From the NCBI RefSeq assembly GCF_030065885.1, contig NZ_JASJCS010000018.1, positions 1 through 63,205 of the forward strand: a stretch of 63,205 nucleotides of DNA, in the 5' to 3' direction. Shown here piece after piece: positions 9,948 to 52,903 of the stretch (position 1 is its first letter; the number at the start of each line of letters is the position of its first letter). The translations under genes and the position numbers were made by a program. Below the pieces are notes generated by a model. The model ran no database searches. It was not told the origin of the DNA and worked only from the letters and a program-made list of their open reading frames with translations. Origin of the DNA: Ilumatobacter sp. (GTDB lineage: Bacteria; Actinomycetota; Acidimicrobiia; Acidimicrobiales; Ilumatobacteraceae).

Positions 9948-9967
9948 GGGTCCTGGCTTCCTCTCGC

Positions 9968-20551: not shown

Positions 20552-21025
20552 CTATGGGGTCAGGGTGCGGCCGTCGGCGGCCCAGGCGCGCACGCCGCCG
20601 TCGAGATCGTAGACCTGCTCGAAGCCGAGCTGCTCCATGAGGGCAGCCGTCTGCCCCGAGCGATTGCCCGAGCGGCAGTAGAGCAGGTACTCGCCGTCGC
20701 GATCGAGGGCGGCGATCTCGTCGGCGAAGGTGTCGGTGTAGAAGTCGATCATCGTGGCGCCCTCGACGTGACCCTCGCCGAACTCCTCGGGCGTGCGGAC
20801 GTCGATCACGGTGATGTCGGGATCGGCCGCGAGCGCGGCGGCTTGTGCCGGTGTGACCAACCCGTAGGCGGGTGTCGCCGAACCCTCGGCGGCGGCAACG
20901 CTCGCATCGTCGCTGTCGCCGCCGCATGCGGCGAGCACCAGCACGGCGGCGAGCGCAGCGATCGGCGCGCGAGCCCGACGGGGGGTCCGGCGGAGGGCGC
21001 TGGCTTCGGTCGAGGTGTGGCCCAT
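20552..21025 (-). CDS. Rhodanese-domain lipoprotein
   Basis: A 157-residue exported protein. An N-terminal signal ends in the lipobox LAAC (VLVLAACGG), and a single rhodanese domain follows with the active-site loop CRSGNRSG. Rhodaneses move sulfane sulfur or sense persulfide; this one would sit on the outer face of the membrane. It is divergent from cydAB, and the 102-base gap between them holds the dyad ATTGTCCGTACAAT, which also occurs upstream of the SulP and CstB-like genes. Membership in that regulon is inferred. Confidence 0.87.
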   Translation of the reverse strand: MGHTSTEASALRRTPRRARAPIAALAAVLVLAACGGDSDDASVAAAEGSATPAYGLVTPAQAAALAADPDITVIDVRTPEEFGEGHVEGATMIDFYTDTFADEIAALDRDGEYLLYCRSGNRSGQTAALMEQLGFEQVYDLDGGVRAWAADGRTLTP

Positions 21026-21056
21026 GTCATGGTCCTTCGTACTCGTGGACGTCGTT

Positions 21057-21070
21057 ATTGTCCGTACAAT
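21057..21070. promoter_or_regulatory. Operator-like dyad ATTGTCCGTACAAT (regulon site 1)
   Basis: ATTGT and ACAAT form a perfect 5-bp inverted repeat around CCGT, between the divergent rhodanese lipoprotein and cydA. Its right half TACAAT could serve as a -10 toward cydA. The core TGTCCGTACA recurs at 25751-25760, 25769-25778 and 28263-28272. Confidence 0.7.
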
Positions 21071-21127
21071 ATCGGATGTCGAGCTCGACCGTCACGCACC
21101 ACCCAGTCCGCGAGAGGATGAGCACAC

Positions 21128-22549
21128 ATGCCGACCGTGCTGATCGCCGCCGACGAACTCGTCGCGGCCCGCTATCAGATGGCCCTGTCGCTGGGCTTCC
21201 ACATCGTGCTCTCGTGCTTCGGTGTCGCACTGCCGGCGATGATCTACGTCCTCCACCGGCGCGGCGTGCGCAACGGCGACCAGGAGGCGCTCGCCCTCGC
21301 CAAGAAGTGGGCCAAGGCGTCGGCCGTCCTGTTCGCGATCGGCGCGGTGTCCGGGACGATCCTGAGCTTCGAGATGGGCTTGCTCTGGCCGGGGATGATG
21401 TCGACCTTCGGCGACGTCATCGGCCTGCCGTTCGCGATGGAGGGCATCGCGTTCTTCCTCGAGGCGATCTTCCTCGGCATCTACCTCTACGGCTGGGGGC
21501 GCCTGCGACCCGAGGTGCACCTCCGCACGCTCATCCCGATCATGCTCTCCGGATTGTTCGGCACGTTCTGCATCCTCGCCGTCAACGCATGGATGAACGC
21601 GCCGGCCGGCTTCACGATGCTCGCCGACGGCACGGTGACCGACGTCGACCCGCTGGCGGCGATCTTCAACGACGCGCTCTGGCCGCAGTTCCTCCACATG
21701 TGGGTCGCGACGTTCGTGGTCGCCGGCTTCCTCACCTCGGCCGTCTACGCGGTCGGGATGTTACGAGGCCGCCGCGACCGCTCGCATCGGCTCGGGTTCA
21801 CGGTGCCGTTCGTCTTCGCAGCGGTCGCCGCGCTCGCGCAGCCGGCGATCGGCCACTGGGCCGGCACCCGGCTCGACACCCAGCAGCCGTCGAAGCTCGC
21901 GGCGATGGAGCTGGCCCTCGAGACCGAGGATCGTGCGCCGGTCGTCATCGGCGGCGTGCTCATCGACGGCGAGGTGCGCGGCGGGATCGAGATCCCGGCG
22001 ATCGCCTCCTTGCTGGCCGGCAACTCGTTCGACACGGTCATAGTCGGCCTCGAGGACATCCCCGAGGACGAGCGACCGCCGGTCAACATCGTCCACTGGT
22101 CGTTCCAGACGATGATCGCGGCCGGCACGGCGATGATCGCGCTCGGCGGGTGGTACGGCTGGCGGCGTCGCCGCTACGGCGCGGACGGCGTCTTCGAGTC
22201 GACGTGGTTCCTGCGGGCCGCGGTCGCCGCCGGCCCGGTCGCCGTGATCGCACTGCAGGCGGGCTGGGTGACCACCGAGGTCGGCCGGCAGCCGTGGATC
22301 GTCTACGGCGTGATGCGGGTCGAGGACGCCGTCACGTCGAACTCCGGCATCTGGATCTCACTGGCTGCGATGGTCGTGATCTACACGAGCATGGCCGTCG
22401 TCGGCGCGCGGGTGCTCCTCGGCATGGCGCGTCGATGGCGAGCCGACCCCTCGTCCGACCTCCCGACGCCGTACGGGCCGGGTGGGTCGCTCCATGACGT
22501 CGACACGACGGGTCCGCCGACCGACGATCTCGTCGGCAGGCCGTCGTGA
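21128..22549 (+). CDS. cydA: Cytochrome bd oxidase subunit I
   Basis: A 473-residue integral membrane subunit that binds the haems and quinol. The N terminus ARYQMALSLGFHIVLSCFG carries the first haem-ligand histidine, GPMM-type loop sequence is in LLWPGMMSTFG, and the C-terminal signature is GWVTTEVGRQPWIVYGVMR. The quinol loop is short, as in cyanide-insensitive-type oxidases. Cytochrome bd reduces O2 with quinol and, unlike haem-copper oxidases, tolerates sulfide. A GAGAGGA Shine-Dalgarno lies 9 nt before the ATG, unlike most genes here. The regulon dyad at 21057 lies 58 bases upstream of the start. Confidence 0.94.
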   Translation: MPTVLIAADELVAARYQMALSLGFHIVLSCFGVALPAMIYVLHRRGVRNGDQEALALAKKWAKASAVLFAIGAVSGTILSFEMGLLWPGMMSTFGDVIGLPFAMEGIAFFLEAIFLGIYLYGWGRLRPEVHLRTLIPIMLSGLFGTFCILAVNAWMNAPAGFTMLADGTVTDVDPLAAIFNDALWPQFLHMWVATFVVAGFLTSAVYAVGMLRGRRDRSHRLGFTVPFVFAAVAALAQPAIGHWAGTRLDTQQPSKLAAMELALETEDRAPVVIGGVLIDGEVRGGIEIPAIASLLAGNSFDTVIVGLEDIPEDERPPVNIVHWSFQTMIAAGTAMIALGGWYGWRRRRYGADGVFESTWFLRAAVAAGPVAVIALQAGWVTTEVGRQPWIVYGVMRVEDAVTSNSGIWISLAAMVVIYTSMAVVGARVLLGMARRWRADPSSDLPTPYGPGGSLHDVDTTGPPTDDLVGRPS

Positions 22550-23553
22550 ACCTCGCCGACGTGGCCGCGATGCTGATGTTCCTCGGCGTCGTCGCGTACG
22601 CCATCCTCGGCGGCGCCGACTTCGGGAGCGGCGTCTGGGACCTGCTCGCCGGCGACGCCCGCCGGGGCGCACATCTCCGCTCCCAGATCGATCGATCGAT
22701 CGGACCGGTCTGGGAGGCGAACCACGTGTGGCTGATCTACGTGCTGGTCTTCCTGTGGACGGCGTTCCCCACCGCGTTCGGCTCGATCATGACGACGCTG
22801 TTCGTCCCGTGGATGCTCGTCGGGCTCGGGATCGTGCTGCGGGGCGGCGCGTTCGCGTTCCGCAAGTTCTCGGGGTCGGTGCGTGAGGCGCGCCTGCACG
22901 GCATCGTCTTCGCGACGTCGTCGGTCGTCACCCCGTTCTTCCTCGGGATGATCGCGGGTGCCGTCGCCAGCGGCCGCGTGCCCGCCGAGGGCACCGGCGA
23001 CCTGTGGCGCTCGTGGACCGGCCCGACCTCCTGGGTGGGCGGCGTCCTCGCGGTGCTGACCGTGTCGTTCCTCGCAGCGACGTTCCTGGCCGCGGACGCC
23101 GAACGAGGCGGCCGCCGCGCCCTGGCGGACGACATCGGGGGCAAGGCGGTCTGGTCGGGCGTCGTCACCGGCGGGGCCGCGCTCGCGGCGGCCATCGCCA
23201 TCGAGGTCGACGCCGACACGCTCGCCGACGGGCTCCACACGTCCGGTCTCGGCTTCGTCGTCTCCTCCGCGGTCGCCGGTCTCGCATCGCTCGTCCTCCT
23301 CCGCCGGCGGAGCTGGGCGCTGGCGCGTGTCACGGCGGTGGCAGCGGTGGCGTCGATCGTCGTCGGCTGGGGCGTCGCGCAGTATCCCGACCTGCTCGTC
23401 GACGAGTTGACGATCGACGACGCGGCCGGCGCACGATCGACCCTGGTCGGGCTGCTGATCGTGTTCGGCGTGGCCGTGGTCACCGCGGTGCCCGCCATGC
23501 TCTGGCTGTTCGCGCTGGTCAACCGCGACGACCGGCAGACCGACCAGCACTGA
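22546..23553 (+). CDS. cydB: Cytochrome bd oxidase subunit II
   Basis: A 335-residue membrane subunit with about eight or nine helices. The N terminus ILGGADFGSGVWDLLAG and the EANHVWLIYVLVFLWTAFP segment are the family signature. GTG start overlaps the cydA stop by 4 bases, so the subunits are co-translated. The CydCD exporter and CydX are not seen in the window. Confidence 0.93.
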   Translation: MNLADVAAMLMFLGVVAYAILGGADFGSGVWDLLAGDARRGAHLRSQIDRSIGPVWEANHVWLIYVLVFLWTAFPTAFGSIMTTLFVPWMLVGLGIVLRGGAFAFRKFSGSVREARLHGIVFATSSVVTPFFLGMIAGAVASGRVPAEGTGDLWRSWTGPTSWVGGVLAVLTVSFLAATFLAADAERGGRRALADDIGGKAVWSGVVTGGAALAAAIAIEVDADTLADGLHTSGLGFVVSSAVAGLASLVLLRRRSWALARVTAVAAVASIVVGWGVAQYPDLLVDELTIDDAAGARSTLVGLLIVFGVAVVTAVPAMLWLFALVNRDDRQTDQH

Positions 23554-23601
23554 GCTCGGCGAACAGCGGACCCCGGTCGAGCGGCGACCCGCGACCCGGC
23601 G

Positions 23602-24084
23602 TCAGGACCGCACTCGGGTCCGAGCACCCGGCTCGAAACGATCGGCCCCGGGGTCGTACCGGACCAGCACATCGTCGTCGTCCGCCTCGGAGGAGACGAT
23701 CACCGGCTGCCCGATCGCCTGACCGAGCTGGCAGATGAACCCGGCCACGACGTCGAGGCAACCCTGGTTGACGAGTTGCCGGCTGTCGATGTCGAAGTCG
23801 ATCGAGGTCTCGTCGAGCGGGAAGAAGTTGATCCGGATGTCGAACTCGAGCAGGACGTTCAGCGTGCCCAACAGCAGATCGCTCGCGAAGAGCTCGGTCG
23901 CCCGCTCGGGCATCGGATGATCGGTACCGTGCGCCTTGAACCGGCTCGCGACCGCGACCTCGTCGACGAGGTCGAGGACGCGCTGCCAGGACGAGAGGGT
24001 GACGTTCTCGACGCGCCCGTTCGGCAGCGATCGTTCGCCGTCGAACGCGGCCATGAAGTCCCGCCAGCCCGGCATCCCCTCCAC
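23602..24084 (-). CDS. Hypothetical protein, 160 aa
   Basis: A soluble acidic protein of 160 residues with no recognised domain (central segment FASDLLLGTLNVLLEFDIRINFFPLDETS). GTG 24084 or ATG 24075 could start it. It is convergent with cydB, 48 bases away. I do not know its function. Confidence 0.55.
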   Translation of the reverse strand: MEGMPGWRDFMAAFDGERSLPNGRVENVTLSSWQRVLDLVDEVAVASRFKAHGTDHPMPERATELFASDLLLGTLNVLLEFDIRINFFPLDETSIDFDIDSRQLVNQGCLDVVAGFICQLGQAIGQPVIVSSEADDDDVLVRYDPGADRFEPGARTRVRS

Positions 24085-24185
24085 ACCACCAGCGTGCCAG
24101 ACGCGGCACCGCCGAACCCGACAATCGCATCGTCATCCCCGCCGGTTCACAGGCCAACCGCAGGCGCCCGACGTTCGCCACGATC

Positions 24186-24247
24186 GGCCGAACGCGTCGC
24201 GCTGCGGAGGCAGGCCAGCTTCGAAGCGGAGCGGAGCATCGTGCTCG
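24186..24247 (-). repeat. Dispersed intergenic repeat, copy 2
   Basis: Read on the minus strand it begins CGAGCACGATGCTCCGCTCC and ends GCGACGCGTTCGGCC, closely matching the copy at 35641-35702; homology to that copy also extends upstream (GGCGAGATGAC, TTTCGCCTG). It lies 3' of the aminotransferase gene on the same strand. The rest of 24085-24378 holds no gene I can support. Confidence 0.65.
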
Positions 24248-24378
24248 GCAGGCGAAACGGGTCATCTCGCCGGATCGATCGCTCCCGCGACGGCGACGAG
24301 GCGAGGGGCACAGCGGAGCGAGCGCCGCAACTCCGGAAGGGCGGCCGCTACATCAGCGGCGCCACGTGTGGAGCCCGT

Positions 24379-25665
24379 TCAGATCTCGGCGATCGCCGCC
24401 GTGAGCGCAGCGACGCCCTCGTCGATCTCGTCGGTGGTGACGTTCAGCATCGGCGCCAGCCGGATCACGTTGCCGTAGAGACCGCCCTTACCCACCAGGA
24501 GGCCGTGACGCTTGCACGCCTCGTGGAACTCGTTCGTCCGGGCCTTGTCGGGTTCGATGCCCCCGGGCTCGCACACCTCGAACGCCCACATCAGCCCGCG
24601 GCCGCGCATCTCGGCGATCCACGGCGCACCTTCCGCGACCGGCCGCATGGCAGCCTCGAACCGCTCGCCCATCGCCTTGGCGTTCGCCTGGCAGTCGTGC
24701 TCGAGCACGTAGCGGAGCGTCGCACTGCCGGCCGACGCCGACAGCGGGTTGCCGCCGAACGTCGAGAAGTTGAGCACGTGGATCGAGTCCATGATCTCGG
24801 CGCGGGCGACGACGCCGGCGAGCGTGATGCCGTTGCCGACGCCCTTCGCGAACGTCAGCATGTCGGGCACCATGTCATGTGCCTGGTAGCCCCAGAAGTG
24901 GTCGCCGGTACGACCCCAGCCGGTCTGCACCTCGTCGGAGATGAACAGGATCCCGCGATTGGCGAGCTCCTTCTGGAACCTCCCGAACAGGCCGTCGGGC
25001 GCGGTGGCGAACCCACCGACACCCTGGATCGGCTCGGCGATCAAGCACGCGACGTCGCCCGCCGACGTCATGTCGAGCAACTGCACGAGATCGTTCACGC
25101 AGGCGTCGGTGTACGCCTCGTCGTCGAGGTCACGGAACGGCGACCGGAGGCGATAGCCGCCCTGCACGAACTGCACGGTCAGGCCCGAGAGGGCGGTCGA
25201 CTTCCACGACGAGTGCGACGTGATCGCCTGGGTCTGGAACGAACGGCCGTGGTAGCTGTTGCGGACCGCCAGGACCTGGCTCGACTTCCGGAACGACGTG
25301 GCCAGCAGGATCGCCGCGTCGTTGGCCTCGGTGCCCGACGGCGTCAGGTAGACGCGGGCATCGGGGATCCCCGACTGGGCGGCGACCAACTCGGCGAACT
25401 CGATCATCGGCTCGCTGAGGTACAGCGTCGAGGTGTGCATCACCTTCGCGACCTGACGCTGCACTGCGGCCGTCACGTCGGGGTTGTCGTGGCCGACCAT
25501 CGTGGTCAGCACGCCGCCGAAGAAGTCGAGGTAGCGATTGCCCTCGAGGTCCCAGACGTAGCCGCCCTCACCACGGTCGATCGAGATCGGCTCGGCGTAG
25601 TACGGCGAGAGGAACGACGGGAGCACACGTCGGTAGCGGGTGGCGAGATCGGCAGTGTTCGTCAC
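24379..25665 (-). CDS. Class III aminotransferase
   Basis: A 428-residue PLP enzyme of the ornithine/GABA aminotransferase fold. GTEANDAAILLA binds the cofactor phosphate, ISDEVQTGWGRTG holds the PLP-pyridine aspartate, TFAKGVGNG holds the Schiff-base lysine, and FSTFGGNPLSAS follows. Closest in appearance to alanine-glyoxylate or acetylornithine-type members; substrate not assigned. I start at GTG 25665 behind a TAACGT box (7 nt). The open frame continues 58 codons upstream, but only across the SulP promoter and operators. Confidence 0.88.
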   Translation of the reverse strand: MTNTADLATRYRRVLPSFLSPYYAEPISIDRGEGGYVWDLEGNRYLDFFGGVLTTMVGHDNPDVTAAVQRQVAKVMHTSTLYLSEPMIEFAELVAAQSGIPDARVYLTPSGTEANDAAILLATSFRKSSQVLAVRNSYHGRSFQTQAITSHSSWKSTALSGLTVQFVQGGYRLRSPFRDLDDEAYTDACVNDLVQLLDMTSAGDVACLIAEPIQGVGGFATAPDGLFGRFQKELANRGILFISDEVQTGWGRTGDHFWGYQAHDMVPDMLTFAKGVGNGITLAGVVARAEIMDSIHVLNFSTFGGNPLSASAGSATLRYVLEHDCQANAKAMGERFEAAMRPVAEGAPWIAEMRGRGLMWAFEVCEPGGIEPDKARTNEFHEACKRHGLLVGKGGLYGNVIRLAPMLNVTTDEIDEGVAALTAAIAEI

Positions 25666-25672
25666 GGCTCGG

Positions 25673-25678
25673 ACGTTA
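25673..25678 (-). promoter_or_regulatory. -10 box TAACGT, leaderless start at 25665
   Basis: On the minus strand TAACGT, 7 nt, GTG 25665. Confidence 0.5.
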
Positions 25679-25733
25679 CTCGCCGGCCGACATGCGCATC
25701 CGAGCCACGCCTGCACGGCGCGAAGGCCAGGGG

Positions 25734-25762
25734 TTGACATGCGACCAAAATGTCCGTACATT
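25734..25762 (+). promoter_or_regulatory. Strong promoter of the SulP gene
   Basis: TTGACA (25734-25739), 17 bases, TACATT (25757-25762): the best -35/-10 pair I saw in the window. The -10 lies inside the right arm of the dyad at 25749-25762, so a bound protein would block it. A second possible -10, TACAAA, is in the next dyad. Confidence 0.75.
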
Positions 25763-25781
25763 ATGAAATGTCCGTACAAAT
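25749..25781. promoter_or_regulatory. Tandem operator-like dyads (regulon sites 2 and 3)
   Basis: AATGTCCGTACATT (25749-25762) has perfect 5-bp arms around CCGT. TGTCCGTACA recurs at 25769-25778, 18 bases on. Both lie between the divergent aminotransferase and SulP genes, over the SulP promoter. The core is identical to the sites at 21057 and 28263. Confidence 0.78.
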
Positions 25782-25804
25782 ACCCCCACCTTGACTGACA
25801 CACC

Positions 25805-27559
25805 ATGACCGCACTCCTCCACCGAATCGCCCCGATCACGACGTGGGCACCGCGCTACGAGCGCCGCGACCTCCGCAGCGACCTCGCTGCCGGCCTGACG
25901 ATCGGCGCGATGCTGGTGCCCCAGGCGATGGCGTACGCGCTCCTCGCGGGCCTGCCGCCCGAGATCGGGCTCTACGCCTCGATCGTGCCGGTGCTGGTCT
26001 ACGCGGTGTTCGGCACCTCGCGGCAGCTCGCGGTCGGACCGGTGGCGATCGTCTCGCTGATGACGGCTTCGACGCTCGCGCCGCTCTACGAGCAGGGCAG
26101 CACCGGCTACGTCACGGCGGCGGCGCTGCTCGCCCTCGCGGTCGGCGCCGTCCACCTCGTGCTCGGGTTCGGCCGCCTCGGCTTCGTCGTCAACTTCCTC
26201 TCGCACTCCGTGCTCGTCGGCTTCACCGCTGCGGCGGCGATCATCATCGGGTTCTCACAGGTCAAGCACGTGCTCGGCATCTCGGTGCCCCGCCAGGACC
26301 ACTTCTACGAAACGGTGCGCGAGGTCGTGTCGGCGATCGACGGCACGAACGGCACCACGCTCGCACTCGGGCTCGCCAGCATCGCGCTGTTGCTCGGGAT
26401 GAAGCGGTGGGCGCGCCGGGTTCCGAGCGCCCTGGTGCTGGTCGTCGTCTCGATCCTGGCGGTGCAGCTGTTCGACCTCGAGGACCGCGGGGTGAAGACG
26501 GTCGGTGAGATCCCGTCCTCGCTCCCCGCCTTCGGCCTGCCCGACATCGACGGCGGCAACCTCGGCTCGCTGATGAGCGCCGCGCTCGTCATCACGCTCG
26601 TCGGCTTCATGGAGTCGATCGCCGTGGCCAAGGTGTACGCGCGCCGCCACCGCTACGAGCTCGACGCCAACCAAGAGCTCGTCGGCCTCGGCATGGCCAA
26701 CGTCGCCTCCGGCCTCTTCGGCGGCTACCCGGTGACCGGCGGGTTCAGCCGCACCGCCGTCAACGACACCGCCGGCGCCCGTACGCCGCTGGCCTCGATC
26801 GTGACGGCGCTGCTCGTGCTGGCCACGGTCGTGTTCTTCACGCCGCTCTTCACCGCACTCCCCCAGGCAGCGCTGGGCGCCATCATCATCGTCGCCGTGA
26901 TCAACCTGATCGACGTCAGGGAGATGCGTCACATCGCCCATGTCAAGCGCAGCGACCTGATCGGGCTCAGCGTGGCGTTCGCCGCGACGCTCGTGCTCGG
27001 CATCGAGCTCGGCATCCTCGTGGCCGTCGTGGCGTCGATGCTCGTCGTGTTCGCCCGCATGTCGAAGCCCCACTCGGCCGAGCTCGGCCGCATCCCGAAC
27101 TCGACCAGCTTCCGGAACGTCGACCGCTTCCCCGAGGTCGAGACCACCGACGGCATCCGCGTGATCCGGATCGACGCAGCGCTGTCGTTCGTCAACGCCA
27201 ACCACGTGAAGCGGCTGTGCATCGACGAAGCCGCCCGGATCGAGACGGCGCCGCATGCCCTGGTCGTCGACTGCTCGGGCATCAACGACATCGACGCGAC
27301 CGGCGTCGAGGCACTCGACGAGATCGTCACCGAGCTCGACGAGGGCCCGGTGACGCTGCACCTGTGCGACGTGAAGGGCCCGGTCCGCGACGTCCTCCAC
27401 CGCACCGACCTCTGGGACCGGCTCGGTGGCCGCATCCACGCAACCGCACACGAGGCGGTCGCCGCGATCGACGCGTGCGTCTCACCGCGCTCGCTGCGCA
27501 CCGCCGGCATCGACGAACACGAGGCGCACGACACCTCGACCGAGCTCAGCCACGCATGA
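25805..27559 (+). CDS. SulP-family anion transporter with STAS domain
   Basis: A 584-residue transporter. The SulP core includes DLAAGLTIGAMLVPQAMAYA, AVGPVAIVSLM, and GGYPVTGGFSRTAVND, within about 12 membrane segments up to residue 420. A cytoplasmic STAS domain follows (about 440-560; DCSGINDIDATGVEALDEI). SulP proteins carry sulfate, bicarbonate or other anions, usually inward. In this context, sulfate or sulfite movement linked to persulfide oxidation is inferred. Its promoter carries two copies of the regulon dyad. Confidence 0.88.
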   Translation: MTALLHRIAPITTWAPRYERRDLRSDLAAGLTIGAMLVPQAMAYALLAGLPPEIGLYASIVPVLVYAVFGTSRQLAVGPVAIVSLMTASTLAPLYEQGSTGYVTAAALLALAVGAVHLVLGFGRLGFVVNFLSHSVLVGFTAAAAIIIGFSQVKHVLGISVPRQDHFYETVREVVSAIDGTNGTTLALGLASIALLLGMKRWARRVPSALVLVVVSILAVQLFDLEDRGVKTVGEIPSSLPAFGLPDIDGGNLGSLMSAALVITLVGFMESIAVAKVYARRHRYELDANQELVGLGMANVASGLFGGYPVTGGFSRTAVNDTAGARTPLASIVTALLVLATVVFFTPLFTALPQAALGAIIIVAVINLIDVREMRHIAHVKRSDLIGLSVAFAATLVLGIELGILVAVVASMLVVFARMSKPHSAELGRIPNSTSFRNVDRFPEVETTDGIRVIRIDAALSFVNANHVKRLCIDEAARIETAPHALVVDCSGINDIDATGVEALDEIVTELDEGPVTLHLCDVKGPVRDVLHRTDLWDRLGGRIHATAHEAVAAIDACVSPRSLRTAGIDEHEAHDTSTELSHA

Positions 27560-27648
27560 CGGCCGGCTCGTCACCGATCCCCGACCGCACCGCCGAACCG
27601 AACACCACCCACACCACCAACCCGACACCAGCCACACCCCAACCTCCC

Positions 27649-27654
27649 GAGGAG
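27649..27654 (+). promoter_or_regulatory. Shine-Dalgarno GAGGAG
   Basis: GAGGAG, 5 nt, ATG 27660. It fixes the start of the rhodanese-DUF2892 gene and shows that this block uses leadered mRNA. Confidence 0.7.
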
Positions 27655-27659
27655 ACACC

Positions 27660-28232
27660 ATGACCATCAGCACGCCGATCCACCCGAGCGAACTCCGCCA
27701 CCTGCTGCGCGAGGACCCCGAGACCCGCGTCCTCGACGTTCGCACCGGCGCCGAGTTCGAGTCGGCCCACATCGAGGGTTCGTTCAACGTGCCGCTCGAC
27801 CTGCTCGCCGAGCAGGTGCGCCACGTCGCCGACGTCGAGCACCCGGTCGTGCTCGTCTGCCAGTCGGGTGGGCGTGCGACCACCGCGCACGCGAAGCTCC
27901 ACGAGGCGGGCAAGACCAACCTGCGCGTGCTCGAGGGCGGCATGGGCGCCTGGCTCGCAGCCGGCGGCGACGTGGTGCGCGGCCAGGAGAAGTGGTCGCT
28001 CGAGCGCCAGGTGCGCGGCGTTGCCGGCGGCATCGTGCTGGTGTCGATCCTCGCGAGCCTCGTGTTCCCGAAGCTGCGCTTCGTCGCCGGCGGGATCGGC
28101 GCCGGGCTGACCTTCTCGGCGCTCACCGACACGTGCACGATGGGCGAGCTGCTCTCGAAGCTGCACTACAACCGCGGGCCGGTCTGCAACCTCGACCGCG
28201 TGCTCGACGAGATGACCGCCGAAGCGGCGTGA
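27660..28232 (+). CDS. Rhodanese-DUF2892 membrane protein
   Basis: A 190-residue protein with an N-terminal rhodanese domain (residues 5-105, active-site loop CQSGGRAT) and a C-terminal DUF2892-type part with two hydrophobic segments (GIVLVSILASLVF and RFVAGGIGAGLTFSALTDTC). It would hold a cytoplasmic sulfurtransferase at the membrane. It lies 100 bases after SulP with no dyad between, so it is probably in the same operon. Confidence 0.85.
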   Translation: MTISTPIHPSELRHLLREDPETRVLDVRTGAEFESAHIEGSFNVPLDLLAEQVRHVADVEHPVVLVCQSGGRATTAHAKLHEAGKTNLRVLEGGMGAWLAAGGDVVRGQEKWSLERQVRGVAGGIVLVSILASLVFPKLRFVAGGIGAGLTFSALTDTCTMGELLSKLHYNRGPVCNLDRVLDEMTAEAA

Positions 28233-28262
28233 GCTTCCTCCGCTGCGATATTGACCGAACTT

Positions 28263-28272
28263 TGTCCGTACA
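28263..28272. promoter_or_regulatory. Operator-like core TGTCCGTACA (regulon site 4)
   Basis: The exact 10-base core recurs 33 bases before the CstB-like start. TTGACC at 28251-28256 is a possible -35, but no good -10 at 16-18 bp is evident. A Shine-Dalgarno-like GGAAAGGA lies at 28288-28295. Confidence 0.65.
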
Positions 28273-28305
28273 TCTAGAGTTCAACCCGGAAAGGAATGGG
28301 GGCTC

Positions 28306-29685
28306 ATGATCTTTCACCAGTACTACTTGGACTGCCTCTCGCACGCGTCCTACCTGATCGGCGACGAGACGACCGGCAGGGGCGTCGTCGTCGACCCGCA
28401 GCGCGACGTGTCGGAGTACCTCGCCGACGCAGCCGACGCCGGCCTGACGATCGAGCTGATCATCGAGACGCACTTCCACGCCGACTTCCTGTCGGGCCAT
28501 CTCGAGCTCGCAGCAGCCACCGGCGCCAAGATCGTCTACTCGTCGGTCGCCGAGACCGAGTTCGAGTCGATGGGCGTCGCCGACGGCGAGCGCTACTCGC
28601 TCGGCGACGTCACGCTCGAGTTCCGCCACACGCCGGGCCACACCCCCGAGTCGTTGAGCATCGTCGTGTTCGAGCACGGGATCGACGAGACGCCCTACGG
28701 CGTGCTCACCGGTGACACGTTGTTCATCGGCGACGTCGGCCGGCCCGACCTGCTCGCCTCGATCGGGTTCACGCGCGACGAGCTCGCCGACAGCCTGTAC
28801 GACTCGCTGCACGGCAAGCTGATGACGCTGCCCGACGCCACCAAGGTCTACCCGGCCCACGGCGCCGGCTCGGCCTGCGGCAAGAACCTCTCGACCGACC
28901 TCTGGTCGACGATCGGCGACCAGAAGGCCAGCAACTACGCCCTCAAGGCGAAGGACAAGGCCACGTTCGTCGAACTGGTCACCGAGGGCCAGCCGCCGGC
29001 GCCCGGCTACTTCGTCTACGACGCCGTCCTCAACCGCAAGGAGCGCGAGCTGCTCGACGAGTCGGCGATGCCGACCGCGATGACCTACGACGAGATGCTC
29101 GCAGCGCTCGAGCGCGGCGCCATGCTCGTCGACGGCCGCAACCCCGAGGACTTCGCACGCGGCCACCTCTCCGAGGCGATCAACGTCGGCCTCAACGGCC
29201 GCTACGCCGAGTTCGCCGGCTCCGTCCTCCCGTCCGACGTCGACATCGTGCTCGTCACCGAACCCGGTCACGAGCTCGAGGGGAAGAACCGGCTGGCCCG
29301 CATCGGCTTCGACCGGGTGATCGGCTACGTCGAGCAGCCGTACAAGGTGATGTTCGAGCACCGCGACGACGTCGACATCGCGTCGAGGCTGACCGCCGGC
29401 GAGTTCAACGCCCGCACGGCGTCGGTCGACGACATCCAGGTGGTCGACGTCCGGAACCCGGGCGAGGTCGAGGACGGCGTCATCCCCGACGCCGTGACGA
29501 TCCCGGTCAGCCAGCTGCCGGGCCGCGTCGACGAGCTCGACGCCACCCGCCCGACGGTCGTCTACTGCGCGGGCGGCTACCGCTCGTCGGTGGCGGCCAG
29601 CATGCTGCGCCAGCGCGGGTTCGTCGACGTCAGCGACATCATCGGGGGCTACGGCGCCTGGATCGAGACCACGCAGTCAGCGTGA
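28306..29685 (+). CDS. CstB-like persulfide dioxygenase with two rhodanese domains
   Basis: A 459-residue protein of three parts. Residues 1-240 are a metallo-beta-lactamase-fold persulfide dioxygenase: ETHFHADFLSGH, TPGHTPES, GDTLFIGDVGRPDL and YPAHGAGSACGK supply the iron ligands and the conserved cysteine. Residues about 258-350 are a rhodanese-like domain whose active loop (LVTEPGHE) has no cysteine. Residues about 365-459 are an active-looking rhodanese (YCAGGYRS). This order matches Staphylococcus aureus CstB, which oxidises low-molecular-weight persulfides. In an organism with mycothiol the substrate may be mycothiol persulfide (inferred). The regulon core lies just upstream. Confidence 0.9.
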   Translation: MIFHQYYLDCLSHASYLIGDETTGRGVVVDPQRDVSEYLADAADAGLTIELIIETHFHADFLSGHLELAAATGAKIVYSSVAETEFESMGVADGERYSLGDVTLEFRHTPGHTPESLSIVVFEHGIDETPYGVLTGDTLFIGDVGRPDLLASIGFTRDELADSLYDSLHGKLMTLPDATKVYPAHGAGSACGKNLSTDLWSTIGDQKASNYALKAKDKATFVELVTEGQPPAPGYFVYDAVLNRKERELLDESAMPTAMTYDEMLAALERGAMLVDGRNPEDFARGHLSEAINVGLNGRYAEFAGSVLPSDVDIVLVTEPGHELEGKNRLARIGFDRVIGYVEQPYKVMFEHRDDVDIASRLTAGEFNARTASVDDIQVVDVRNPGEVEDGVIPDAVTIPVSQLPGRVDELDATRPTVVYCAGGYRSSVAASMLRQRGFVDVSDIIGGYGAWIETTQSA

Positions 29686-29734
29686 CCGACCTGCCAGACT
29701 CCCGGCGACCGTGCCCGCGAACCGGGCCATCAAC

Positions 29735-29741
29735 GAGGGAG
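29735..29741 (+). promoter_or_regulatory. Shine-Dalgarno GAGGGAG
   Basis: GAGGGAG, 5 nt, ATG 29747. It supports this start over the in-frame GTG at 29711. Confidence 0.65.
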
Positions 29742-29746
29742 CGTCC

Positions 29747-31279
29747 ATGACCCGACTCGGCTTCGCTCTGCTGAGCGACAGTTGCATCGGCTGCCACGCC
29801 TGCACCGTGGCATGCAAGAGCGAGCACGACGTACCTCTCGGCGTCAACCGGACCTGGCTGAAGTACATCGAGACCGGCGCGTTCCCGAACACGGGACGCG
29901 CCTTCTCGGTGATGCGCTGCAACCACTGCGACGACGCGCCGTGCATGACGATCTGTCCGACCAGCGCGCTCCACCGCGCGCCGAACGGCGTCGTCGACTT
30001 CCAGGACGACAACTGCATCGGCTGCAAGGCGTGCATGAACGCCTGTCCGTACGACGCGATCTACATCAACCCCGAGACGAACACGGCGCACAAGTGCAAC
30101 TTCTGCAACCACCGGGTCGAGGTCGGCCTCGAACCGGCCTGCGTGACCGTGTGTCCGACCCACGCGATCGTCACTGGCGATCTCGACGACCCCGACTCCG
30201 AGGTGTCGCGGATCGTGGCACGGGACAAGACGGCGGTCCGGGCACCCGAGCAGGGCACCAATCCGAAGGTGTTCTACCGCGGCGTCGATCAGGCGTCGCT
30301 CGACCCCACCCGCACGATGATCAACGCCGACGGCATGATCTGGGCCGACACGACGCCGGATCATCCGACGATCACACCGACGATGGCCGAGCACTCCGGG
30401 ACCGGTGTCGTGGCCCGCACCGCCTACACGACGACGCACCACATGACCTGGAAGTCGAAGGTCTCGGGTTACCTGGTCACGAAGGCGATCGCCGCCGGCC
30501 TGATGCTGATCGCATCGCTGCTCGTGGTCCTGGGGCACGCCGATGAGCAGGCGGCGGTCGGCGTCGTCCCGGCCGTGCTCGCCGGCGTGTTCACGGCGGC
30601 GACCGGCGTGCTCCTCATCGCCGACCTCAAGCAGCCGACACGGTTCCTGTACATCCTGACCCGCTCGAACACCACGTCCTGGTTGGTTCGCGGCGCATGG
30701 ATCCTGGGCGCGTTCGCGGCGCTCGTCGGGTTGTGGGGCCTGTTCGGCATCGCCGACACCGGTGGCCCGCTGAAGGTGCTCGCGCTGCCCGTGTCGCTCC
30801 TGGCGGCGGGCGTCGCCGGCTACACGGCGTTCCTGTTCGGTCAGTGCGAGGGCCGCGACCTCTGGCAGACCCCGCTCCTGCTGCCCACGCTGCTCGCGCA
30901 GGCGGTCGTCGCCGGCGCCTCGGCGTACTCGATCCTCGACCTGTTCATGGACGTCCCCGAGCAGCAGGCGATCCGCATCGCCTTCCTGGGCGCGATCGGC
31001 GGGTTGGCGCTGCTGATCGCGACCGAGCTGTGGTCGACCGGCAGTCGTCACGTCGAGCTCGCCACCCTCGAGATGACCCGCGGCAAGTACGCCGCCCAGT
31101 TCTGGTTCGCCGGCGCACTGAACGGCCTGCTCGTTCCGGCCGGGCTGCTCGTGTTCGCCCTCGCCGCAGACACCACCAGCCCGTGGCCGGCCGCATGCGC
31201 GGGCGCCGCCGCCCTGTTCGGCCTGTTCGCCTACGAGGACGCCTACGTCCGCGCCGGCCAGTCGGTACCGCTCTCGTGA
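29747..31279 (+). CDS. Fused 4Fe-4S electron-transfer and NrfD-type membrane subunit
   Basis: A 510-residue fusion. The first 190 residues are a DmsB/PsrB/SoeB-like ferredoxin with four cysteine groups (CIGCHACTVACKSEH, CNHCDDAPCMTICP, CIGCKACMNACPYDA and CNFCNHR...CVTVCP) for four 4Fe-4S clusters. After a linker, residues about 235-510 hold about eight membrane helices of the NrfD/DmsC/PsrC type that exchange electrons with quinone. Usually these are two genes. It precedes the catalytic subunit, so together they would form a membrane-bound molybdoenzyme. No Tat signal, so the FeS part faces the cytoplasm. Confidence 0.85.
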   Translation: MTRLGFALLSDSCIGCHACTVACKSEHDVPLGVNRTWLKYIETGAFPNTGRAFSVMRCNHCDDAPCMTICPTSALHRAPNGVVDFQDDNCIGCKACMNACPYDAIYINPETNTAHKCNFCNHRVEVGLEPACVTVCPTHAIVTGDLDDPDSEVSRIVARDKTAVRAPEQGTNPKVFYRGVDQASLDPTRTMINADGMIWADTTPDHPTITPTMAEHSGTGVVARTAYTTTHHMTWKSKVSGYLVTKAIAAGLMLIASLLVVLGHADEQAAVGVVPAVLAGVFTAATGVLLIADLKQPTRFLYILTRSNTTSWLVRGAWILGAFAALVGLWGLFGIADTGGPLKVLALPVSLLAAGVAGYTAFLFGQCEGRDLWQTPLLLPTLLAQAVVAGASAYSILDLFMDVPEQQAIRIAFLGAIGGLALLIATELWSTGSRHVELATLEMTRGKYAAQFWFAGALNGLLVPAGLLVFALAADTTSPWPAACAGAAALFGLFAYEDAYVRAGQSVPLS

Positions 31280-31281
31280 TC

Positions 31282-31306
31282 TCACGTTGTGTCAGACACA
31301 ACGTGA
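31282..31306. promoter_or_regulatory. Perfect 25-bp palindrome, candidate GntR operator 1
   Basis: Arms of 12 bases, TCACGTTGTGTC and its exact complement, flank a single central A (31294). It begins 2 bases after the stop of the FeS/NrfD gene. The core TTGTGTC-N-GACACAA recurs 61 bases on. It resembles the symmetric sites of HutC/UTRA regulators such as TGGTCTAGACCA. Confidence 0.75.
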
Positions 31307-31342
31307 AACGGGCGCGGTCCGTCCAGTCACGTACCCGCGATT

Positions 31343-31367
31343 TCAGCTTGTGTCTGACACAACGTGA
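31343..31367. promoter_or_regulatory. Near-perfect palindrome, candidate GntR operator 2
   Basis: The same sequence as operator 1 with the left arm changed to TCAGCTTGTGTC and the centre T. The 15-base core is fully symmetric. It ends 15 bases before the molybdoenzyme start. Confidence 0.75.
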
Positions 31368-31370
31368 GGT

Positions 31371-31377
31371 GAAGGAG
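31371..31377 (+). promoter_or_regulatory. Shine-Dalgarno GAAGGAG
   Basis: GAAGGAG, 5 nt, ATG 31383. Confidence 0.7.
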
Positions 31378-31382
31378 CTTCC

Positions 31383-34199
31383 ATGACTCTCGCCAATCAT
31401 CCGCCGCACGACAGGTGGCACGACTGGACCGAGTTGGACGCCAAGGCGTGGCCCGACAAGGTCGAGCGCAACTACACGATCGTGCCCACGACGTGCTTCA
31501 ACTGCGAGGCCGCCTGCGGGTTGACGGCCTTCATCGACAACGAGACCGGCGAGATCGCCAAGTTCGAGGGCAATCCCGAGCACCCGGCGAGCCGGGGCCG
31601 CAACTGCGCCAAGGGACCGGCGACCCTCAACCAGGTCGACGACCCCGAACGCGTCCTGTACCCGATGAAGCGGGTCGGCGAGCGTGGCTCCGGCCGGTGG
31701 GAGCGGATCAGCTGGGATCAGGCGCTCGACGAGATCGGCGCCAACATCCGTCACGCCCTCGAAGAGGACCGCACCGACGAGGTCGTCTGGCACGTCGGCC
31801 GCCCCGGCGAGGACGGCTACACCGAGCGGGTCCTCAAGGCCTGGGGCGTCGACGGCCACAACAGCCACACCAACATCTGCTCGTCGAACGCCCGCATCGG
31901 CTACCAGTCGTGGATGGGCCACGACCGCCCGTCGAGCGACTACGCGAACGCCGAGGTGATCTTCCTCATCTCGTCGCATCTCGAGACCGGCCACTACTTC
32001 AACCCGCACGCCCAGCGGATCATGGAGGGCAAGGCCAAGGGCGCCACCGTCATCTGCTGCGACACCCGGCTCTCCAACACGGGCGCCAAGGCCGACTACT
32101 GGCTGTCGACGTGGCCCGGCACCGAACCGTTCCTGCTGCTCGCGATCGCCCGGCTCCTGATCGAGAACGGCACCTGGGAGCGCGAGTTCGTCGAGCGCTG
32201 GGTCAACTGGGACACCTACCTGCGAGAGACCCGGCCCGACCTCCCCTGCGAGTTCGAGTCGCTCGAGCAAGCGCTGCTCGATGCGTACGCCGAGTACACC
32301 CCCGAGACCGCGGAGCACGTCACCGGCGTGGCGGCCGACACGATCCGCGAGATCGCCGAGATCATCGGCGCCCACCCCACCAAGTTCGCCTCGCACAACT
32401 GGCGGTCGGCCGGCGCCGGCAACCTCGGCGGCTGGCAGGTGGCGCGCTGCCTGTTCTTCATCAACGTCCTCACCGGCTCGGTCGCCACCGTCGGCGGGAC
32501 GGCGGGCAACGGCTGGAACAAGATGTCGCCGCCGCACCCGTTCGGCGGCCAGCCGATCACCAAGTGGAACGAGCTCGCGTGGCCGAAGGAGTACCCGCTC
32601 GCCTACCACGAGATGTCGATCCTGCTCCCCCACTTCCTCAACGAGGGGCGGGGCAAGCTCGCCGTCTACTTCAGCCGCGTCTACAACCCGATCTGGACCA
32701 ACCCCGACGGGTTCACGTGGATGGAGGCACTGCTCGACGAGTCGAAGGTCGAGTGCCACGTCGCGCTCACCCCCACGTGGTCCGAGACCGCCTGGTACGC
32801 CGACTACGTGCTCCCGATGGGTGTCGCGTCCGAGCGCCACGACCTCGCCAGCTTCGAGACCCATGCCGGCCGGTGGGTCGGCTTCCGCCAACCGGTGATG
32901 CGGCGGTACGCCGAGATCAAGGGTGACGAGATCGGTCCCGACCGTCGCACGTACGAGTTCAACAAGGGCGAGGTCTGGGAGGAGAACGAGTTCTGGATCG
33001 ACCTGTCCTGGCGGATCGACCCCGACGGCGCGCTCGGCGTCCGCAAATTCTTCGAGAGCCACGAGCACCCCGGCACGCCGGTCGGCATCGACGAGTACTA
33101 CTCGAAGCTGTTCGAGGGCATCCCGGGTCTGGCCGACGACGCGGCGGCGGCCGGCCAGTCGCCGCTCGAGTTCATGCGCGAGCGTGGCGCCTACGCCGTG
33201 CCCGGCGACACGATCAAGCCGTACGAGCGAGCGGTCGACCCGTCGGCGGTCGAGGGCTGCACGAAGGACGACTCGGGTGTCCTCCGCAAGCCCGGGACGC
33301 CGGGCACGTGGGACGGATCCGACGACACGCTCGGCGACCTGACGCTCGCCAAGCTCGGCGACGGCTCGCCGGCGATCGAGATCGACGGCGAGCTGAAGGA
33401 AGGCTTCCTCACGCCCTCGAAGAAGCTCGAGCTGTTCTCGACGACCCTCAAGGACTGGGGCTGGCCCGAGTACGCGACGCCCGGCTGGATCCCTTCCCAC
33501 GTCCACTGGGAGGACCTCGACATGGCGGGGAACGAGCGCATCCTCCTGCCGACGTTCCGCATCCCGACGCTGATCCACACCCGCTCGGCGAACTCGAAAT
33601 GGCTCAACGAGATCAGCCACCGTCACCCGCTGTGGATCCATCCGGCTGACGCCGAGCGGCTCGGCATCGAGGAGGAGGGCCTCGTCCGCATCACGACCCG
33701 GATCGGCCACTTCGTGATCTCGTCGTGGCGCACCGAGGGCATCCGGCCCGGCGTCGTCGCCGCGTCGCACCACATGGGCCGGTGGCGTATCGAGGAGGAC
33801 GAGGCGCGCTCGTGGGGCGCAGGCAAGGCCCGGATCTCCCACGACGGCACGTCGTGGAAGCTGACCCGCGAGCACGGCATGCGCAACTGGGAGTCCGCCG
33901 ACCCCGACACGCAACGGATCTGGTGGAACGACACCGGCGTGCACCAGAACCTGACGTTCGCCGTGCAGCCCGACCCGATCTCGGGCATGCAGTGCTGGCA
34001 CCAGCGCGTCCGGGTCACCCCTGCCGAGCCGGGCGACGAGTACGGCGACGTGGTGGTGGACACCGCCAAGTCGCGCGAGGCCTATCTCGACTGGCTGGCG
34101 AGGACGCGGCCGGCGCCGGGCCCGGGCGGGTTGCGGCGACCGCTGTGGTACGCCCGGCCGCTGAAACCTGAGCCGAGTGCGTACCGGATGCCAAACTGA
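31383..34199 (+). CDS. DMSO-reductase-family molybdoenzyme, catalytic subunit (SoeA/PsrA-like)
   Basis: A 938-residue molybdopterin oxidoreductase. An N-terminal 4Fe-4S site is formed by C38, C41, C45 and C75; the predicted Mo ligand is C166 in NICSSNARIG; the C-terminal dinucleotide-binding domain starts near RIPTLIHTRSANSKWLNE. There is no Tat signal, so it works in the cytoplasm like SoeA (sulfite to sulfate) and unlike periplasmic PsrA/PhsA. With the fused FeS/NrfD partner and the CstB-like enzyme upstream, oxidation of sulfite or thiosulfate is the favoured reading. Formate or another oxyanion cannot be ruled out. Two long palindromes just upstream suggest control by the GntR protein. 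Confidence 0.85.
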   Translation: MTLANHPPHDRWHDWTELDAKAWPDKVERNYTIVPTTCFNCEAACGLTAFIDNETGEIAKFEGNPEHPASRGRNCAKGPATLNQVDDPERVLYPMKRVGERGSGRWERISWDQALDEIGANIRHALEEDRTDEVVWHVGRPGEDGYTERVLKAWGVDGHNSHTNICSSNARIGYQSWMGHDRPSSDYANAEVIFLISSHLETGHYFNPHAQRIMEGKAKGATVICCDTRLSNTGAKADYWLSTWPGTEPFLLLAIARLLIENGTWEREFVERWVNWDTYLRETRPDLPCEFESLEQALLDAYAEYTPETAEHVTGVAADTIREIAEIIGAHPTKFASHNWRSAGAGNLGGWQVARCLFFINVLTGSVATVGGTAGNGWNKMSPPHPFGGQPITKWNELAWPKEYPLAYHEMSILLPHFLNEGRGKLAVYFSRVYNPIWTNPDGFTWMEALLDESKVECHVALTPTWSETAWYADYVLPMGVASERHDLASFETHAGRWVGFRQPVMRRYAEIKGDEIGPDRRTYEFNKGEVWEENEFWIDLSWRIDPDGALGVRKFFESHEHPGTPVGIDEYYSKLFEGIPGLADDAAAAGQSPLEFMRERGAYAVPGDTIKPYERAVDPSAVEGCTKDDSGVLRKPGTPGTWDGSDDTLGDLTLAKLGDGSPAIEIDGELKEGFLTPSKKLELFSTTLKDWGWPEYATPGWIPSHVHWEDLDMAGNERILLPTFRIPTLIHTRSANSKWLNEISHRHPLWIHPADAERLGIEEEGLVRITTRIGHFVISSWRTEGIRPGVVAASHHMGRWRIEEDEARSWGAGKARISHDGTSWKLTREHGMRNWESADPDTQRIWWNDTGVHQNLTFAVQPDPISGMQCWHQRVRVTPAEPGDEYGDVVVDTAKSREAYLDWLARTRPAPGPGGLRRPLWYARPLKPEPSAYRMPN

Positions 34200-34205
34200 T
34201 CGGGC

Positions 34206-34979: not shown

Positions 34980-34991
34980 CGGGCCCGAGCG

Positions 34992-52899: not shown

Positions 52900-52903
52900 T
52901 AGC

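What the first reader, a model, noticed from the sequence alone, without database searches (positions are those of the whole stretch)
20552..31279. One 10-base dyad, TGTCCGTACA, marks three sulfur/respiration transcription units
The identical core TGTCCGTACA occurs in the intergenic regions before cydAB (divergent from a rhodanese lipoprotein), before SulP (twice) and before the CstB-like gene. Sites 1 and 2 are perfect dyads around CCGT (arms ATTGT/ACAAT and AATGT/ACATT). No other intergenic copy was noticed. Four copies in front of functionally related genes point to one regulator that senses sulfide, persulfide or redox state. No ArsR, CsoR or Rrf2 gene is in the window, so the regulator is unknown.
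Basis: partly seen in the sequence, partly recalled or inferred. Interest (0 to 1): 0.85.

Follow-up and report, generated by a model that had tools for sequence, protein, structure and literature searches.

The report
GntR-type switch for sulfur detox genes
The repeated DNA word is a real control site in front of sulfide-handling genes, and the protein that most likely reads it is a GntR/HutC-type repressor encoded in the same cluster, which would be an unusual, apparently cysteine-independent way for bacteria to switch on sulfide detoxification.

Summary
WTGTCCGTACAW occurs four times in the window and nowhere else in the 5.04 Mb draft genome. A fifth exact core lies inside an SDR gene.

Homologs of that regulator sit beside the same sulfur genes across the order, and TGTCCGTACA is the top 10-mer de novo (52 of 315 upstream regions, none in five shuffled sets). 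The motif precedes 25 of 27 SulP, 42 of 62 CstB-like and 12 of 15 rhodanese-lipoprotein genes (reversed control 2 of 315). In held-out loci outside the order it occurs in 15 of 20, reversed 0. Its GT-4-AC layout is the published HutC layout. In 32 of 152 sites a -35 box lies exactly where the right arm becomes the -10 box, arguing for steric repression.

Best reading: an autoregulated HutC-type repressor of sulfide/persulfide/sulfite oxidation, relieved by a small ligand. No cysteine is conserved, so thiol sensing is unlikely. Ligand unknown; binding untested.

The parts
20552..21025 (-). rhodanese-domain lipoprotein, divergent from cydA, served by site 1
   Evidence: Pfam PF00581, 74.3 bits; homologs have the motif upstream in 12 of 15 regions
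21058..21069 (+). operator site 1 (TTGTCCGTACAA), perfect dyad outside the CCGT centre
   Evidence: PWM score 22.9
21128..22549 (+). cydA, cytochrome bd oxidase subunit I
   Evidence: PF01654, 437 bits; motif upstream in 2 of 3 cydA regions
22546..23553 (+). cydB, cytochrome bd oxidase subunit II
   Evidence: PF02322, 203 bits
   Evidence: PF00202, 288.8 bits; motif upstream of 3 of 4 homologs, the window's included
25734..25762 (+). sigma-70-like promoter TTGACA-17-TACATT of SulP; its -10 box overlaps the right arm of site 2a
   Evidence: one of only two promoter-like sites found in 20900-35100; 0.5 expected
25750..25761 (+). operator site 2a (ATGTCCGTACAT), overlaps the -10 box
   Evidence: PWM score 26.4
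25768..25779 (+). operator site 2b (ATGTCCGTACAA), 18 bp after site 2a
   Evidence: PWM score 24.7
25805..27559 (+). SulP-family anion permease with STAS domain
   Evidence: TIGR00815 511 bits, above its cut-off; motif upstream of 25 of 27 SulP regions
27660..28232 (+). rhodanese with YgaP-like membrane part, following SulP (ATG start inferred within the ORF 27426-28232)
   Evidence: PF00581 and PF11127 on the ORF 27426-28232
28251..28280 (+). sigma-70-like promoter TTGACC-18-TAGAGT of the CstB-like operon; site 4 lies in its spacer
   Evidence: the second of two promoter-like sites in 20900-35100
28262..28273 (+). operator site 4 (TTGTCCGTACAT)
   Evidence: PWM score 19.5, with a weaker neighbouring match at 28252 (10.6)
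28306..29685 (+). CstB-like protein: metallo-beta-lactamase (persulfide dioxygenase type) plus two rhodanese stretches
   Evidence: Pfam; solved MBL-rhodanese proteins 3tp9 E 8e-82 and 3r2u E 1e-58
29711..31279 (+). fused 4Fe-4S + NrfD-type membrane subunit of the molybdoenzyme ('SoeBC-like', label recalled)
   Evidence: PF13247 and PF03916 in one ORF
31383..34199 (+). molybdopterin oxidoreductase catalytic subunit (Phs/Psr/Soe-like; exact substrate not assigned)
   Evidence: PF00384/PF01568/PF04879; no NCBIfam cut-off met; nearest solved: arsenate reductase ArrA and thiosulfate reductase
34206..34979 (+). GntR/HutC-subfamily regulator (GntR HTH + UTRA), proposed to bind all four sites and to be autoregulated through site 4
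   Evidence: PF00392 43.6 bits, PF07702 105.6 bits

Best explanation
The four copies are operators of the GntR/HutC-subfamily repressor encoded at 34206-34979. A dimer of it would bind TGT-CCGT-ACA at the -10/spacer region of three promoter regions and keep RNA polymerase off cydAB, the rhodanese lipoprotein, SulP-rhodanese, the divergent aminotransferase and the CstB-like/molybdoenzyme/regulator operon; the last gives negative autoregulation. When a small-molecule signal of sulfur load occupies the UTRA pocket the repressor leaves, and the cell makes sulfide/persulfide/sulfite-oxidising, exporting and sulfide-tolerant respiratory proteins. Shown by sequence: the sites, their genome-wide rarity, their conserved association with this regulator clade and with sulfur genes, and, for sites 2a and 4, overlap with promoter-like sequences. 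Inferred: binding, repression, autoregulation, induction. Most speculative: the ligand, for which I favour a sulfur oxyanion (sulfite or thiosulfate, about 0.35), because the anion-holding Arg-x-Arg pair is invariant and no cysteine is conserved.
For: Regulator in the same operon. Genomes of the order with a close homolog carry WTGTCCGTACAW in 46 of 84, others in 35 of 214 (Fisher p 1e-10); the backward pattern shows no difference, 13 of 84 and 35 of 214. 10, 19 and 33 of 112 sites lie within 0.5, 3 and 10 kb of the middle of a homolog gene against 0.01, 0.07 and 0.22 expected. De novo, TGTCCGTACA is the top 10-mer in 315 upstream regions of 118 non-redundant loci (52 regions; none in five shuffled sets). 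PWM: 149 of 315 regions, 2 in reversed regions. Held-out loci outside the order: 15 of 20, reversed 0. Published HutC operators are palindromes with GT and AC mostly 4 nt apart, consensus GTMTAKAC (PMC4494728): here GT-CCGT-AC, differing only at the two central bases. HTH residue 53 is His in 110 of 117 clade members and in none of 19 other HutC proteins; the paper ties HTH position 39 to the central bases (equating the two is mine). TTGACA-like box at exactly -17 in 32 of 152 sites, background 0.5% per offset, nominal p 1e-41. Clade separated from the 19 others with support 100/92.
Against: No binding or expression data. 34 of 118 loci have no site scoring above 14 and 5 of 20 held-out loci have none. 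Upstream of the regulator's own homologs the motif is found in only 56 of 118. The PWM was trained on the regions counted, so only the reversed control, the shuffles and one search are independent of it; sites in related loci are not independent of each other, so p values are nominal. Of 20 hand-picked loci of divergent HutC paralogs, 5 have a hit above 12 (reversed 1) and 3 above 14, one of these with a CstB-like gene. Of 20 fetched stretches around sites away from the regulator, 7 show no sulfur or redox gene at the site, 4 of them with the site inside a gene. Divergent promoters enter twice in the region counts. The agreement of HTH residue and operator is confounded by shared ancestry. The Arg-x-Arg pair is common in HutC proteins (17 of 19 controls keep both, by column), so it does not point to sulfur.
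Confidence: 0.86

Rival explanations
1. The sites belong to another regulator (CsoR/CstR, ArsR or Rrf2 type) encoded elsewhere, and the GntR gene is only a neighbour.
For: Known sulfide/sulfane-sulfur regulators include CstR, CsoR, SqrR/BigR and FisR (PMC8148161, PMC11211675; passages). CsoR homologs occur in 6 of 118 loci and sometimes next to a site. The own genome has one CsoR-family protein. ArsR and Rrf2 genes of the genome were not searched for.
Against: The own CsoR lies on another contig and no site scores above 14 in its 3.2 kb locus. CsoR is in only 6 of 118 loci while 84 of 118 have a site. Sites within 500 bp of the GntR homologs are about 900 times more frequent than expected. The operator has the HutC layout.
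Confidence: 0.08
2. The word is a dedicated promoter element (a conserved -10 region of a sigma factor) rather than an operator.
For: In 32 of 152 sites the right arm is a -10-like box with a TTGACA-like box 17 bp upstream.
Against: 120 of 152 sites have no such -35 box in that direction. The left arm TGTC is also well conserved, 76-84% per base. Sites occur in both orientations and as pairs (27 of 146 regions have two or three). Site 4 lies in the spacer of another promoter-like sequence.
Confidence: 0.04
3. The GntR/HutC protein is the regulator but acts as an activator, or mainly controls organosulfonate/amine use (signalled by the aminotransferase), with sulfite disposal as a consequence.
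For: A class-III aminotransferase is divergent from SulP in the window and has a site in 3 of 4 homologs; a taurine aminotransferase is among its more distant solved relatives (6jix, E 4.5e-40); HutC proteins control use of histidine, sugars, alkylphosphonates and others (PMC4494728).
Against: The aminotransferase is in 8 of 118 loci only, against CstB-like in 63. Other genomes put SQR-like (7 of 18), TauE, peroxiredoxin, YeeE/YedE-type, cysteine/methionine PLP enzymes and cyd genes beside the site, which fits inorganic sulfur. Overlap with -10 argues against activation.
Confidence: 0.12

Closest known systems
NagR (YvoA) of Bacillus subtilis and DasR of Streptomyces coelicolor, GntR/HutC repressors
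   Same: Closest solved relatives by profile (2wv0 E 9e-44, 9i0v E 2e-35); same HTH + UTRA; the phosphate-holding Arg133/Arg135 and Tyr167 of NagR (PMC4333415) correspond to Arg136/Arg138/Tyr171, invariant in 117 of 117.
   Different: Regulon is sulfur oxidation, not amino sugars. Ala224 of the sugar pocket is Arg in 116 of 117, Glu145 is Asp in 116 of 117, Thr90 is Phe/Tyr in 112 of 117, and the residue that is Met in NagR is His in 110 of 117. Central operator bases CG instead of the TA of the HutC consensus.
CstR/CsoR-type persulfide repressor with cstAB-sqr (Staphylococcus aureus)
   Same: Works alike: repressor of a CstB persulfide dioxygenase, a sulfurtransferase and SQR (PMC8148161).
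   Different: Unrelated protein family; CstR and SqrR react through cysteines (PMC11211675), whereas here no cysteine column exceeds 36 of 117 and 28 of 117 proteins have none.
SqrR/BigR (ArsR family, recalled) and FisR (sigma-54 type, recalled)
   Same: Control sulfide oxidation genes (PMC8148161).
   Different: Different protein families; FisR activates RNA polymerase with ATP hydrolysis. Their operators were not compared here.

Membership tests
GntR family, HutC subfamily | N-terminal GntR winged HTH | tested here: met
   PF00392 43.6 bits, cut-off 27
GntR family, HutC subfamily | C-terminal UTRA effector domain | tested here: met
   PF07702 105.6 bits, cut-off 23.8
GntR family, HutC subfamily | operator a palindrome with GT and AC usually 4 nt apart | tested here: met
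   TGT-CCGT-ACA in the window; PWM of 149 sites; binding itself untested
GntR family, HutC subfamily | operator centre TA (consensus GTMTAKAC) | tested here: not met
   centre CG in 149 of 152 sites (the PWM itself favours CG, but the unbiased 10-mer has it too); a variation within the subfamily, not an exclusion
GntR family, HutC subfamily | binds DNA as a dimer and is released by a small ligand | not testable with these tools
   needs protein
NagR/DasR orthologs (amino-sugar regulators) | amino-sugar genes in the regulon and conserved sugar contacts | tested here: not met
   recurrent neighbours are sulfur genes; Ala224 and Glu145 replaced
thiol-based persulfide sensors (CstR, SqrR, MarR type) | conserved reactive cysteines | tested here: not met
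   best cysteine column 36 of 117; 28 of 117 proteins without any; the window protein has one, Cys201, in a column without conserved Cys
CstB-like persulfide dioxygenase-rhodanese (28306-29685) | MBL domain followed by rhodanese domains | tested here: met
   PF00753 and two PF00581 stretches; near full-length match to 3tp9/3r2u; activity not tested
SoeABC sulfite dehydrogenase (29711-34199) | sulfite-oxidising molybdoenzyme | tested here: inconclusive
   A plus fused B-C architecture fits Soe, Psr and Phs alike (recalled); no NCBIfam cut-off met

The most novel reading that the evidence does not exclude
A phylum-wide, HutC-type, cysteine-independent master repressor of sulfide/persulfide/sulfite oxidation that reads a dissolved sulfur metabolite (for example sulfite or thiosulfate) in the anion pocket that holds sugar phosphates in NagR and DasR: a ligand-binding logic, where the known sulfide-oxidation regulators seen here read protein persulfidation.
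Probability: 0.35. Interest if true: 0.8.

Novelty: new variant of a known kind. Interest (0 to 1): 0.66.

Why it matters
Sulfide-oxidation regulators named in the passages seen here (CstR/CsoR, SqrR/BigR, FisR, OxyR) respond to sulfide or sulfane sulfur, through cysteines where those passages give a mechanism. A GntR/HutC clade that appears to control the same kind of enzymes across a large set of mostly uncultivated Actinomycetota, without a conserved cysteine, would be a separate solution. It supplies a predictive operator (one PWM found sites in 15 of 20 held-out loci) with which sulfur regulons can be read from genomes, and a directly testable ligand question. Six searches of the held open library with GntR or HutC terms returned 6 papers in all, none of which by title, start of abstract or the passages read describes such a regulator; subscription journals are not covered.

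Tried and rejected
Unknown regulator outside the window: replaced by the GntR/HutC gene. CsoR as the reader of the site: own CsoR gene (G000:C120) has no site above 14 in its 3.2 kb locus. Promoter element only: 120 of 152 sites lack a matching -35 box. Thiol sensing: no conserved cysteine. Orientation bias of the asymmetric site relative to the gene: not significant in any of seven gene families (lowest p 0.058). Covariation between HTH and operator: the highest mutual information was low (0.29 bits) and confounded by ancestry; residue 42 Arg goes with G at the second core base in 25 of 25 sites and Leu with 59 G and 16 A, which agrees with the published Arg-G trend if residue 42 is its position 28 (my equation) but proves nothing. 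Assigning the molybdoenzyme's substrate: not possible. Assigning the aminotransferase's substrate: best profile hits are below cut-off. Structure prediction was not run, because a profile match to NagR at E 9e-44 already fixed the fold. Rows dropped: GntR homologs weaker than E 4.2e-41 were left out; of the 62 hits ranked after the window's own down to G264, 60 were fetched, two (G015, G105:C15) skipped; loci with regulators sharing 80% or more of 5-mers were merged (141 to 118); one of 118 was left out and one of 20 controls. A flaw: the RhodTM query carried 36 residues of untranslated lead, so its upstream windows were placed too far away and its count of 4 of 20 is not reliable.
Full report
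CHECK. Five exact copies in the window compare with 0.02 expected. The fifth, 14163-14172 (-), is inside the coding frame of a short-chain dehydrogenase and has no A/T flanks. With flanks, WTGTCCGTACAW has exactly four places in the window and the same four in the whole draft genome, none for the backward pattern. The symmetric form WTGTNCGNACAW adds a single place. With up to two mismatches to AWTGTCCGTACAWT the genome has eleven places: the four here, two beside a paralogous regulator on contig C102, and five single ones; the backward pattern has none. The genome is 90.7% complete, so about a tenth is unseen.

ANATOMY. Site 1 lies between a rhodanese lipoprotein (-) and cydAB (+). Sites 2a and 2b, 18 bp apart, lie between a class-III aminotransferase (-, 24379 to about 25665) and SulP (+), which is followed by a rhodanese/YgaP-like protein. 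Site 4 precedes a CstB-like protein, a fused FeS-NrfD subunit, a molybdopterin oxidoreductase and, six bases after that, a 257-residue GntR protein with UTRA domain. The consensus scan found only two sigma-70-like promoters in 20900-35100 (0.5 expected): one in front of SulP, whose -10 box TACATT overlaps the right arm of site 2a, and one in front of the CstB-like gene, whose 18-bp spacer holds site 4. It found none at site 1.

THE REGULATOR TRAVELS WITH THE SITE. Homologs of the GntR protein at E <= 0.001 occur in 191 of 298 genomes of the order. I took the 97 strongest hits (84 genomes, E down to 4.2e-41). WTGTCCGTACAW occurs 112 times in 81 of 298 genomes; 46 of 84 genomes with a strong homolog have it, 35 of 214 without (odds ratio 6.2, p 1e-10). 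The backward control, 61 places in 48 genomes, shows no link (13 of 84, 35 of 214), and in genomes without a strong homolog the site count (39) is no higher than the control's (45). Sites cluster at the homologs: 10 within 500 bp of the middle of the gene, 0.01 expected.

DE NOVO MOTIF. From 60 neighbourhoods, the 80 best of 544 named public loci, mostly titled Acidimicrobiales, Acidimicrobiia, Ilumatobacteraceae or Actinomycetota MAGs with a few odd titles, and the window, I kept 118 non-redundant loci and took 250 bp upstream of eight gene families, 315 regions. Without any prior, TGTCCGTACA is the most enriched 10-mer: 52 regions, none in five sets of dinucleotide shuffles. A PWM refined from it hits SulP 25 of 27, CstB-like 42 of 62, rhodanese lipoprotein 12 of 15, cydA 2 of 3, the regulator 56 of 118, SoeBC-like 8 of 37, RhodTM 4 of 20 (not reliable, see Tried and rejected), SoeA-like 0 of 33; reversed regions give 2 of 315. 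On whole loci it finds 165 sites above 12, against 5 in reversed sequence. 84 of 118 loci have a site above 14; 34 do not.

OTHER TARGETS. SQR-like genes have a site in 7 of 18 cases (the family assignment is Pyr_redox_2 plus a sub-cut-off match to an SQR model). Twenty stretches around sites away from the regulator, from 15 genomes, were fetched. In 13 of 20 the site stands before a sulfur or redox gene: CstB-like, SulP, rhodanese lipoprotein, SoeBC-like, cydA, a CsoR/RhodTM/CstB group, a 1-Cys peroxiredoxin, a YeeE/YedE-type sulfur transporter, a PLP enzyme of the cysteine-synthase type and a Cys/Met-metabolism PLP enzyme. In 7 of 20 it does not: 4 sites lie inside a gene and 3 beside genes with no evident sulfur role (some names by eye). 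In the same-genus, single-contig genome G006 the cydA beside the site is only 29% identical to the window's, while SulP is 81% and the Nudix protein 77%: the oxidase looks exchanged, the site stayed.

HELD-OUT TEST. The regulator reaches other members of the phylum (23 of 296 sampled genomes at E <= 1e-40, 18 of them outside the order). I fetched all 21 such homologs in 20 stretches, 19 of them outside the class. With the PWM unchanged, 15 of 20 have a site above 14, none in reversed sequence, and 17 of 20 hold at least one CstB-like (30-34% identical), TauE, SulP, Soe-like, SQR-like, rhodanese or cyd gene. As a negative set, 20 hand-picked neighbourhoods of divergent HutC paralogs gave 5 with a hit above 12 (3 above 14; reversed 1 above 12) and sulfur genes in one, which also had a strong site. 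These control stretches are shorter (at most 8.8 kb against up to 21 kb).

WHY HutC AND WHY REPRESSION. Suvorova et al. (PMC4494728; passages and section 11) give HutC operators as palindromes with GT and AC mostly 4 nt apart, consensus GTMTAKAC, and link HTH position 39 to the two central bases. Here the operator is GT-C-CG-T-AC, the consensus with CG in place of TA, and the residue I equate with position 39 is His in 110 of 117 clade proteins and in none of 19 other HutC proteins of these genomes (17 of 21 held-out proteins). The site is not a true palindrome: the right arm reads GTACA and the left arm, on the other strand, GGACA. A reason appears: in 32 of 152 sites a TTGACA-like box (at least 5 of 6) starts exactly 17 nt before the core, so that TACAWT of the right arm is a -10-like box with a 17-bp spacer; the background per offset is 0.5% (nominal p 1e-41), and the reverse direction shows a weaker peak at the same place (7 of 152). 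A protein on such a site covers the -10 region, hence repression. The regulator's place at the end of the site-4 operon, and sites before 56 of 118 of its homologs, suggest autoregulation.

SENSING. No cysteine is conserved: the best columns have 36 and 29 of 117, and 28 of 117 proteins have none (ends of some proteins may be cut). Known sulfane-sulfur sensors react through cysteines (PMC11211675, passages). NagR holds the phosphate of its ligand with Arg133, Arg135 and helix ends at Thr90 and Ser165-Tyr167, and sulfate was seen to mimic that phosphate (PMC4333415, passages); DasR does the same and the Arg pair is widespread in HutC proteins (PMC4918961, passages). By the profile alignment these are Arg136, Arg138 and Tyr171, invariant here, while the sugar-side Ala224 is Arg in 116 of 117, against 7 of 19 in the other HutC proteins. 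A small anion is therefore plausible; sulfite or thiosulfate is my guess, nothing more.

KNOWN OR NEW. The protein is a HutC-subfamily GntR regulator by domain content and by operator layout; no NCBIfam model reaches its cut-off. A tree separates the sulfur clade (60 of 117 order rows plus 21 held-out rows) from 19 other HutC proteins with 100/92 support; several control rows are very long, so the root is unsure. Six text searches with GntR or HutC terms found no regulator of sulfide, persulfide or sulfite oxidation of this family (2, 0, 0, 1, 1 and 2 papers). Of those 6, passages of two were read: there gntR is listed among sugar-metabolism genes affected by sulfide. The other four were seen as listings only.

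VERDICT. A correct and valuable observation; the regulator is very probably in the window. New variant of a known kind, with an open and testable question about its ligand.

Noticed in passing
L045 (G000:C102:3000-19955), regulator 9568-10305, sites 10504 and 12012: The same genome has a second regulator of this clade (56% identical) with TATCCGTACA sites before a second CstB-like gene and an SQR-like gene; two near-identical operators raise the question of cross-talk.
   Followed up: partly
L251 (G000:C62:6422) and L255 (G000:C185:43509); L100 (G174:C40:11883): Weaker sites (two mismatches) lie at the start of cytochrome c oxidase subunit II and before a PCu(A)C copper chaperone/redoxin pair in the own genome, and a strong site precedes COX3 in another genome: the heme-copper oxidase may be part of the regulon.
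   Followed up: partly
L224, 7750-9327 and site 9387 (same-genus genome G006): The cytochrome bd genes beside the conserved site are a different, only 29% identical type, as if the oxidase had been exchanged behind an unchanged control region.
   Followed up: partly
window 24379-25665 (-): A class-III aminotransferase of unassigned substrate shares the SulP control region; it is found with a site in close relatives too.
   Followed up: partly
L205 (3680-3979), L165 (11258-11593) and others: In a few relatives a CsoR-family regulator gene sits next to a site, which may mean two layers of sulfur control.
   Followed up: no
window 51746-53999: Two adjacent ORFs look like a transposase pair by eye (lower third-position GC, 0.80-0.83); not tested.
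   Followed up: no
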